Origin: a virus
Direction: 5' to 3' (one strand)
IMG/VR virus record: IMGVR_UViG_3300005095_000128
Coordinates: 1 to 64,000 of that record
Length of the DNA: 64,000 bases
Shown: one piece after another, positions 58,439 through 59,786 of the stretch
How positions within the stretch are numbered: position 1 is the first letter of the stretch
How the letters are laid out: each line of letters begins with the position of its first letter
Translations under genes and position numbers: made by a program
Notes under the pieces: model-generated
Database searches by the model: none
Told to the model about the DNA's origin: nothing
Seen by the model: only the letters and a program-made list of their open reading frames with translations

Positions 58439-58496
58439 GGCCGGCCGCCTTGACGCGGCGAGGGGGCTCCCCCGAGAGGGGGTCTAAGTGCCGGCC
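58439..58496 (+). ncRNA. Three-way-junction RNA motif, copy A
   Basis: P1 GGCCGGC/GCCGGCC (58439-58445, 58490-58496), P2 CGCC-TTGACGC-GGCG, linker GGGGGCT, P3 CCCCC-GAGA-GGGGG. Same layout as copy B at 59728 with compensating changes in P1 and P3. Function unknown. Confidence 0.6.
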
Positions 58497-58586
58497 GGGG
58501 ACCTTGAAAGCCTAGCCCATGCGCCGCCCCGCCCATGCGCGTATGCCCCCGCGTATGGGCATAGGGGTAGGCTAGGGGCGCGTTAG

Positions 58587-58614
58587 GCCCATACGCGCGT
58601 AAGCGCGTATGGGC
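58587..58614 (+). repeat. 12-bp hairpin with GTAA tetraloop
   Basis: Perfect stem 58587-58598/58603-58614. Its 3' arm repeats GCGTATGGGC found at 58551. It ends 12 nt before the 143-aa gene start, so it may affect ribosome access. Confidence 0.6.
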
Positions 58615-58626
58615 TAGGGGGTAAAA

Positions 58627-59058
58627 ATGACCTGGAGCGAATACTCACGCGAATACGAAAAACTAACTAAGGCTATCCAGGACGCACTTGCGGCGCACCT
58701 TGGCAAGGGCGCCGCCAAGCGCTTGGTGTCCGCCGGCGAATCGGCGGCGCTGAACACCCTAAAGGCCTTAGACCCGGCCAAGGGCCGGGAACTGGCCAAG
58801 GCGCTTGACGCCTTGGCCGCCCAAGCGCGTAACGTGGCCTTAGATACGGCCACGGAATACGCAAGGCAAGCGCTTCAGGCGCGTGAGCGATACGAAAAAA
58901 CGCTCAGCAAGCTCAACGCGCGTTTTTCGAGCAAAGGCGATAAGGTAAGTATTGCCCTAATGGGTAATACTTACACTTTTGTAATCAAGGCCGGGGGGCG
59001 CTTGGAGCTCATCCCCAAGACCCCACGGGGGGCCAAGGGCCCCCGCCGGCGCAAGTAA
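58627..59058 (+). CDS. Alanine-rich helical protein, 143 aa
   Basis: Ala/Lys/Leu-rich amphipathic helices (residues about 15-100), then a small strand-rich end (KVSIALMGNTYTFVIKAGG) and a basic tail GAKGPRRRK. GGGGGT precedes the ATG. Sits in a very GC-rich stretch unlike the neighbours. Looks like a DNA-coating or structural protein (inference). Confidence 0.55.
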   Translation: MTWSEYSREYEKLTKAIQDALAAHLGKGAAKRLVSAGESAALNTLKALDPAKGRELAKALDALAAQARNVALDTATEYARQALQARERYEKTLSKLNARFSSKGDKVSIALMGNTYTFVIKAGGRLELIPKTPRGAKGPRRRK

Positions 59059-59082
59059 GGCATAGGCGCATGGGCTAGGCTC

Positions 59083-59256
59083 AGGGGGCGGATTATCCCG
59101 CCCCCTAAAATAAACCCGGCAAGCCATAATCATCATAAACATTTTTCCAGGCTTGCCGGGCGGCGCGAAGGCCGGAGTGAGTCCAAGCTCCGGCCGGGGC
59201 CGCGGTTGCGCTTGCATCCCGGCCCTAAATACGCGGCCTAGTATTCGGCCGCGTAT
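59083..59256. repeat. Cluster of three large inverted repeats
   Basis: 59083-59106 (9-bp stem); 59115-59160 (11-bp stem CCCGGCAAGCC/GGCTTGCCGGG around a 24-nt A/T-rich loop); 59229-59256 (10-bp stem, 8-nt loop). None has a U-tract. No frame with good codon use; 59257-59621 holds nothing I recognise. Confidence 0.6.
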
Positions 59257-59621
59257 CGCGCCGGAATTTTTGAACAAATAAAGCGGGACTCCCTACGCGC
59301 TTGCCGCCGGCGCGTAGGGGTTTAGCGAAACGGCGGTGTGCCCCGGTAGGGGGTGCAAAAGTAGGCCACGGGCTTAGGGTCCTTGCGCTAGCCCGGGCAT
59401 ATGCGTGTACATGCTGCCATACGTTTAGTATCACGCCGCGCAACATATGCTTACGCAAGCTCGCCCGGCTACCTGGCTCCGGGTAGCCGTAGCCCGTGCT
59501 AGCGCGTAGAGAGGACGTGGCAACCCCGCCTATGGGCGGGCGGGGTTATGGCCGTGGCCGGGGCGCGTAGCGATATGCGCTAACGCAAGGCATTGCGCCG
59601 GAAAAGACTTCGTGCGCCCTA

Positions 59622-59687
59622 GGTGGACCACTGCACCACCCGATTGGTATTTGAACCGGCTAGCGGGTGGTGTGCAAGTGGTCTACC
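59622..59687. repeat. Long imperfect palindrome
   Basis: CACCACCCG (59634-59642) pairs with CGGGTGGTG (59664-59672); outer arms GGTGGACCACTG and AGTGGTCTACC extend it with few mismatches. A 21-nt loop lies between. Possible cruciform or RNA stem. Confidence 0.5.
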
Positions 59688-59727
59688 GACTCGGGTGGTG
59701 AATGCAGCCCGAGGTATCCCCCGCGAA

Positions 59728-59786
59728 TCCGCCCCGCCTTGACGTGGCGCGGGGGCTCGGCGCGTAGGCGCCGCGAAGAGGGCGGA
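59728..59786 (+). ncRNA. Three-way-junction RNA motif, copy B
   Basis: P1 TCCGCCC/GGGCGGA, P2 CGCC-TTGACGT-GGCG, linker GGGGGCT, P3 CGGCGC-GTAG-GCGCCG. P2 and linker are nearly identical to copy A; P1 and P3 differ but still pair. Lies 50 nt before the next gene. Confidence 0.6.

What the first reader, a model, noticed from the sequence alone, without database searches (positions are those of the whole stretch)
58439..59786. Two copies of a covarying three-way-junction RNA motif
Copies at 58439-58496 and 59728-59786 share P2 (CGCC-TTGACGY-GGCG) and linker GGGGGCT, while P1 and P3 differ in sequence but keep pairing. That is covariation inside one genome. Each precedes a short gene. I know no RNA family with this signature.
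Basis: seen in the sequence. Interest (0 to 1): 0.7.

Follow-up and report, generated by a model that had tools for sequence, protein, structure and literature searches.

The report
Two phage HDV-like self-cleaving ribozymes
The two RNA motifs are copies of a self-cutting RNA enzyme of the hepatitis-delta type, from a widespread phage branch whose active site departs from the textbook rule and which often sits between genes, where it probably cuts the virus's long messages into separate pieces.

Summary
Each copy is a nested double pseudoknot with the exact topology of an HDV-like ribozyme. The shared 'GGGGGCT linker' is the 3' strand of a 7-bp P1 (its 5' strand lies just upstream, at 58430 and 59718) followed by J1/4. 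J4/2 carries the catalytic-C signature (CTAAGT, CGAAGA).

Scans of phage contigs gave about 38 distinct relatives with massive covariation in P1, P2, P3 and P1.1. The catalytic C was kept 20/20 when the search did not ask for it. Relatives lie exactly at tRNA 3' ends (as published theta ribozymes do) or, more often, a few nt after a stem-loop and just before a gene.

The branch differs from known HDV-like ribozymes: the 'essential' cleavage-site G1.U37 wobble is replaced by C1-G37 (39/40) together with an inverted P1.1 pair (G22-C38 instead of C22-G38). Most likely these are self-cleaving ribozymes that split phage transcripts between genes. Cleavage is inferred, not shown. It is a new variant of a known kind.

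The parts
58430..58496 (+). HDV-like ribozyme copy A; predicted cut between 58429 and 58430
   Evidence: descriptor and core scans; 0 chance hits in 2412 shuffles
   Evidence: P1 covaries in 47 distinct sequences
58484..58489 (+). copy A J4/2 CTAAGT; predicted catalytic C at 58484
   Evidence: C conserved 20/20 when not specified in the query
58388..58414 (+). 12-bp hairpin upstream of cut A (15 nt before it; a partial tandem duplication CTATCCTACCCCC lies between)
59718..59786 (+). HDV-like ribozyme copy B; predicted cut between 59717 and 59718
   Evidence: Rfam RF02682 full-length match at 59718-59787, 20.1 bits, below threshold
59718..59724 (+). copy B P1 5' strand CCCCCGC, pairs with 59749-59755 GCGGGGG
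59728..59734 (+). copy B P2 5' strand TCCGCCC, pairs with 59780-59786 GGGCGGA
59736..59748 (+). copy B P3 GCC/GGC with L3 TTGACGT
59756..59773 (+). copy B J1/4 (CT) and P4 hairpin CGGCGC-GTAG-GCGCCG
59774..59779 (+). copy B J4/2 CGAAGA; predicted catalytic C at 59774
59690..59713 (+). hairpin CTCGGG...CCCGAG ending 4 nt before cut B
   Evidence: family-wide pattern
59059..59717 (+). 659-nt stretch between gene A and ribozyme B, no plausible gene, strongly folded; its 3' end would be made by ribozyme B
   Evidence: MFE -358.6 kcal/mol, z -10.4 against 20 shuffles; neighbouring coding stretches are also hairpin-rich
58627..59058 (+). ORF of 143 aa downstream of ribozyme A (129 nt between); no Pfam match
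59836..60279 (+). ORF of 147 aa downstream of ribozyme B (49 nt between, GGGGG before the start); no Pfam match, no relatives in viral contigs

Best explanation
The two elements are HDV-like self-cleaving ribozymes of a phage-borne branch. P1 and P2 with P3 form the nested double pseudoknot, closed by a one-pair P1.1 (G in L3 with C in J1/4, next to a U:U pair as in human CPEB3). The J4/2 cytosine (58484, 59774) acts as general acid, and cleavage falls directly 5' of P1 (58429|58430 and 59717|59718). In the cell they cut the nascent polycistronic phage transcript between genes: the upstream RNA ends in or near a stem-loop with a 2',3'-cyclic phosphate, and the downstream mRNA starts with the folded ribozyme and a 5'-OH, which should change the stability of each piece independently of the host's RNases. 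Shown computationally: fold, covariation, conserved catalytic C, position relative to tRNAs, hairpins and genes. Inferred: the cleavage itself, the role of the products, and that C1-G37 supports fast cleavage. Probabilities: HDV-like fold about 0.95, self-cleaving about 0.85, intercistronic processing as the main role about 0.6.
For: Fold: an HDV descriptor with free L3 finds only these two in 64 kb, both strands; the family descriptor gives 0 hits in 2412 shuffles. Relatives: with a query that says nothing about P1 5' or P2, 25 of 27 distinct loci form all 7 P1 pairs (11% when partners are swapped between loci), and P2 is 5 bp or longer in 24 of 27 against about 9%. Covariation over 47 distinct sequences: 99.7% of cells paired against 61% in shuffles, 14 of 15 pairs with changes on both sides, score 1.03 against 0.21; P1.1 occurs as G-C 39, C-G 7, U-A 1. 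Catalytic C: 20 of 20 well-paired copies have C-N-A/G-A before P2 although neither was in the query. Copy B: the best of 4227 Rfam families is an HDV ribozyme, full length, with the predicted 5' end. Cut position: same-type copies start exactly at the base after a tRNA (L419 twice, L145) or one base after an encoded CCA (L416), the geometry of the in vitro verified theta ribozymes (PMC10879173). In 24 of 37 non-tRNA loci a strong hairpin ends 0-3 nt before the predicted cut (random positions: mean 3.6, max 8). 16 of 40 lie 18-49 nt before an SD and ATG. One contig (L030/L067) carries 7 copies of this type and two near-canonical HDV-like copies, most of them before genes.
Against: No biochemical or RNA-seq evidence. 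The first pair is C1-G37, whereas a guanosine 3' of the cut giving an 'essential' G.U wobble is the design rule for HDV ribozymes (PMC1634876), and G1A cuts CPEB3 cleavage from 92% to 3% (PMC8233481). Rfam HDV models do not reach threshold. The hairpin rule is loose in the window itself (4 and 15 nt before the cuts), and copy A is 129 nt from its gene. The closest named relatives by RNR, Thermus phages TSP4 and P23-45, have no such element.
Confidence: 0.85

Rival explanations
1. The RNA keeps the HDV fold but no longer cleaves: with C1-G37 it is an inactive structural element that insulates the 5' end of the mRNA or works as a regulatory switch in the leader.
For: C at position 1 in 39/40 goes against the known requirement for G; many copies lie directly before SD and ATG; L3 and J1/4-J4/2 are very conserved among relatives, though partly because of the query.
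Against: The catalytic C is kept 20/20 without being asked for. Copies lie exactly at tRNA 3' ends and just after hairpins, which makes sense for a cut at P1. The inversion of P1.1 is coupled to the change of pair 1-37 (Fisher p 1.3e-7, sequences not independent), as expected of a retuned active site, not of decay.
Confidence: 0.12
2. A paired excision device: cuts A and B together release a 1288-nt RNA (58430-59717) with 5'-OH and 2',3'-cyclic phosphate that is ligated into a circle or kept as a phage noncoding RNA, perhaps with the phage's Ro60-like protein.
For: Two same-strand ribozymes flank one gene and a strongly folded 659-nt stretch; the phage encodes a Ro60/TROVE protein at 48546-50045.
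Against: No RtcB ligase in the 83.6-kb record. Relatives usually have single copies or many copies each before a gene, not pairs around a noncoding RNA. Hairpin richness is not special to this stretch.
Confidence: 0.08
3. Chance GC-rich hairpins or promoter -35 boxes (TTGACG) without RNA function.
For: Folding energy of the copies is no better than shuffled sequence; the generic descriptor reaches 2 hits in 5 of 100 shuffles.
Against: 0 of 2412 shuffles match the family descriptor. Relatives have swap-controlled pairing and covariation. A control pattern of equal length with another L3 gave one real member among 34 distinct hits. By eye no -10 box follows TTGACG.
Confidence: 0.02

Closest known systems
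Theta ribozymes / minimal HDV-like ribozymes of phages (drz-Mtgn; Kienbeck et al. 2024, PMC10879173)
   Same: Same topology, mostly P4-less, catalytic C in J4/2, Caudoviricetes, some copies exactly at tRNA 3' ends. The theta-type copies found here differ from the window type mainly in the active-site pairs (TTCACG...GTTT, G1.U37).
   Different: C1-G37 and G22-C38 instead of G1.U37 and C22-G38. Mostly not at tRNAs but just before genes, after a hairpin; the paper reports most non-tRNA theta ribozymes more than 200 nt from an ORF and G1 as cleavage site. The window copies have a stable P4. Overlap with the paper's data files could not be checked.
Human CPEB3 ribozyme
   Same: L3 UUCACGU (from memory) against UUGACGY here; one-pair P1.1 plus a U:U pair, for which compensatory mutants are active (PMC9901934).
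   Different: P1.1 inverted (G-C) and C1-G37; CPEB3 needs G1.
Rfam RF02682 HDV-F-prausnitzii and RF00094 HDV_ribozyme
   Same: Full-length alignment with the predicted ends: copy B 20.1 bits to RF02682, copy A 12.8 bits to RF00094.
   Different: Far below gathering scores 44 and 50; no G1, different P1.1 and J1/4.
R2 retrotransposon HDV-like ribozymes
   Same: Double pseudoknot with variable or absent P4 and flexible active-site sequence (PMC3774820).
   Different: Eukaryotic retroelements; the ribozyme defines the 5' end of an element, not a junction between phage genes.

Membership tests
HDV-like ribozymes (structural class) | Nested double pseudoknot in the order P1 5', P2 5', P3 hairpin, P1 3', (P4), J4/2, P2 3' | tested here: met
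HDV-like ribozymes (structural class) | P1 about 7 bp, P3 3 bp with a 7-nt L3 | tested here: met
   (both were search terms; P1 pairing confirmed by the swap control)
HDV-like ribozymes (structural class) | L3 with U20 and G25 (reverse wobble) | tested here: met
   TTGACGY has U at position 1 and G at position 6 of L3; the role of the pair is from PMC4227795
HDV-like ribozymes (structural class) | P1.1 pair(s) between L3 and J1/4 | tested here: met
   G-C 39, C-G 7, U-A 1 across subtypes
HDV-like ribozymes (structural class) | Catalytic C at the start of J4/2 followed by N-A-A | tested here: met
   20/20 have the C; 19 CNAA, 1 CNGA, without query bias
HDV-like ribozymes (structural class) | G at position 1 in a G.U (or G-C) pair at the cleavage site | tested here: not met
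   C1-G37 in both window copies and 39/40 of the branch
HDV-like ribozymes (structural class) | Mg2+-dependent self-cleavage giving 5'-OH and 2',3'-cyclic phosphate | not testable with these tools
   needs in vitro transcription
Theta ribozymes (tRNA-associated phage subgroup) | Cleavage site within 5 nt of a tRNA 3' end | tested here: not met
   no tRNA near either window copy; met by four copies of the same branch in L419 (two), L145 and L416
Theta ribozymes (tRNA-associated phage subgroup) | Minimal, P4-less architecture | tested here: not met
   both window copies have a P4 of 5-6 bp; most relatives lack it
Rfam RF02682 / RF00094 | Score at or above the gathering threshold | tested here: not met
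   20.1 against 44 and 12.8 against 50 bits

The most novel reading that the evidence does not exclude
A widespread, undescribed phage branch of HDV-like ribozymes in which the G1.U37 cleavage-site wobble, held to be essential, is replaced by C1-G37 together with an inverted P1.1 pair. The branch is deployed as a modular intercistronic cutter (stem-loop, cut, ribozyme, Shine-Dalgarno, gene), up to nine HDV-like ribozymes per contig, so that phages segment their operons without protein nucleases.
Probability: 0.5. Interest if true: 0.82.

Novelty: new variant of a known kind. Interest (0 to 1): 0.7.

Why it matters
The G1.U37 wobble is linked to the catalytic metal in current HDV models; a natural branch that consistently lacks it and has swapped the neighbouring pair gives a ready set of active-site variants for mechanistic work. 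The position between a stem-loop and a gene, repeated many times in one phage, suggests a biological use for HDV-like ribozymes beyond tRNA trimming: cutting phage operons into pieces. The GC-rich copies here come from a phage whose RNR is closest to Thermus phages, so they may also be unusually heat-stable.

Tried and rejected
(1) Energy folding of the copies: uninformative. (2) Generic HDV descriptor alone: not decisive, 5 of 100 shuffles reach 2 hits. (3) Rfam at gathering level: only two tRNAs in the window. (4) Relatives of the downstream 147-aa protein: none. (5) BLASTN of the region against named phages: none. (6) Bacterial genome scan with a strict pattern: one good member among 28 hits (L262). 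(7) A U-A P1.1 subtype: only crAss-like phage cr272_1 (L428) among 34 distinct hits; a BLAST hit to cr273_1 was not examined. (8) Thermus phages TSP4 and P23-45 and the rest of this record: no further copies. (9) MFE z-scores as proof that 59059-59717 is a special noncoding RNA: weakened, because coding neighbours are also hairpin-rich. (10) RtcB partner for circularisation: absent. (11) First mixed-length alignment A1 misaligns P1, so pairs were counted on a composite alignment of paired segments; that alignment uses P1 and P2 chosen by pairing, so the swap test is the unbiased control.

Full report
WHAT IS THERE. The window is part of an 83,581-base virus record of a tailed phage: ribonucleotide reductase, DNA repair exonuclease, capsid, portal and a Ro60-like protein. 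Its RNR is closest to Thermus phages TSP4 and G20c, about 51% identical. The two motifs are exact repeats of the core CGCCTTGACGYGGCG only. Reading 10 nt further upstream shows that the shared GGGGG run pairs with CCCCCTC (58430-58436) and CCCCCGC (59718-59724), giving a pseudoknot.

THE FOLD. Copy A reads P1 CCCCCTC, AT, P2 GGCCGGC, C, P3 GCC, L3 TTGACGC, P3' GGC, P1' GAGGGGG, J1/4 CT, P4 CCCCC-GAGA-GGGGG, T, J4/2 CTAAGT, P2' GCCGGCC. Copy B reads CCCCCGC, GAA, TCCGCCC, C, GCC TTGACGT GGC, GCGGGGG, CT, CGGCGC-GTAG-GCGCCG, CGAAGA, GGGCGGA. This is the order of an HDV-like ribozyme. L3 differs from human CPEB3 (UUCACGU, from memory) at the one base that forms P1.1, and J1/4 changes with it (CPEB3 G, here C). 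In CPEB3 this second pseudoknot is one Watson-Crick pair plus a U:U pair, and compensatory double mutants are active (PMC9901934).

IS IT MORE THAN CHANCE. Energies of the copies do not help. A generic HDV descriptor with free L3 returns only these two in the window but reaches two in 5% of shuffles. Adding the family L3 and J1/4, none of 2412 shuffles has a hit. Independent support comes from relatives.

RELATIVES. Patterns on P3/L3/J1/4, with or without J4/2, were scanned in viral contigs. After removing near-duplicates, 40 copies of this type remain including the two here. With a pattern that says nothing about the 5' strand of P1 or about P2, 25 of 27 loci form all seven P1 pairs against 11% when partners are swapped between loci, and 24 of 27 have P2 of 5 bp or more against about 9%. 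Pair counts over 47 distinct sequences: 99.7% of cells paired, 14 of 15 pairs with changes on both sides, far above shuffled and slid controls. In loci found without asking for J4/2, all 20 with a good P2 have the catalytic C followed by N-A/G-A. Narrow Rfam scans give HDV families as full-length matches at the predicted ends, best of all families for copy B, but below threshold.

A DISTINCT BRANCH. Copies with C22-G38 (TTCACG...GT) begin with G (G.U in 6, G-C in 1); copies with G22-C38 (TTGACG...CT) begin with C in 39 of 40 (Fisher p 1.3e-7, sequences are not independent). One crAss-like phage copy has U22-A38, again with C1-G37. The cleavage-site pair and P1.1, which are stacked neighbours (PMC4908430), therefore changed together. 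Published rules require G1. Either this branch cleaves with a retuned site or it does not cleave.

WHY CLEAVAGE IS LIKELY. L419 carries two copies whose P1 starts at the base right after tRNA-Leu and tRNA-Lys, L145 one after tRNA-Met (here G1-C37), and L416 one a base beyond the encoded CCA of tRNA-Asn. This is the geometry of theta ribozymes, four of which were shown to cleave in vitro (PMC10879173). Of 37 copies away from tRNAs, 24 have a strong hairpin ending 0-3 nt before the predicted cut, with a sharp peak at 1 nt; random positions in the same loci give 3.6 on average and 8 at most. A hairpin plus one base, then the cut, resembles the end of a tRNA acceptor arm and makes sense as a protected 3' end.

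CONTEXT AND ROLE. Sixteen of 40 copies lie 18-49 nt before a start codon with a Shine-Dalgarno sequence. One contig (IMGVR 3300009481_000027, loci L030 and L067) has seven copies of this type and two near-canonical HDV-like copies, most of them before genes. I infer that they cut polycistronic transcripts between genes. In the window, cut A lies between a 62-aa ORF (58197-58385, followed by a 12-bp hairpin) and the 143-aa ORF; cut B lies between a strongly folded 659-nt stretch and the 147-aa ORF. Both cuts together would release 1288 nt. Whether that piece is kept, or circularised by a host ligase, is open; the record has no RtcB.

NOVELTY. The class is known, and minimal HDV-like ribozymes in phages are known. 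The literature I could reach describes G1 and tRNA association; I found no description of this branch, of its coupled active-site change, or of the hairpin-ribozyme-gene layout. The library holds only open-licence papers and the supplementary lists of PMC10879173 could not be opened, so some members may already be listed there. Verdict: new variant of a known kind.

Noticed in passing
window 59059-59717: 659-nt stretch without a plausible gene, folding at -358.6 kcal/mol (z -10.4 against 20 shuffles), made of many long hairpins, ending at the predicted cut of ribozyme B; a possible large structured phage RNA.
   Followed up: partly
window 57900-58200 and 58600-61100: Coding and noncoding stretches in this small-gene region are unusually hairpin-rich on both strands (z -4 to -7), for example 60301-60500 inside an ORF.
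   Followed up: no
window 57837-57931: AATGCGATAAGCATG repeated three times about 30-50 nt apart.
   Followed up: no
window 48546-50048: Phage-encoded Ro60/TROVE protein with its vWA domain, a binder of structured noncoding RNAs, in a phage that carries structured RNAs.
   Followed up: partly
L400 5516-6018: An HDV-like ribozyme of theta type starts at the base after the end of a phage tmRNA (tmRNA 5516-5961, P1 at 5962), suggesting ribozyme-made tmRNA 3' ends.
   Followed up: partly
L202 4823-4901, 5326-5383 and 5886-6326: Two ribozymes of the window type lie upstream of a GOLLD-like RNA (79.8 bits, below its threshold of 150) in a phage tRNA cluster.
   Followed up: no
L428 1501-1567 (crAss-like phage cr272_1): HDV-like element with P1.1 changed to U-A and C1-G37; its P4 region is unclear.
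   Followed up: partly
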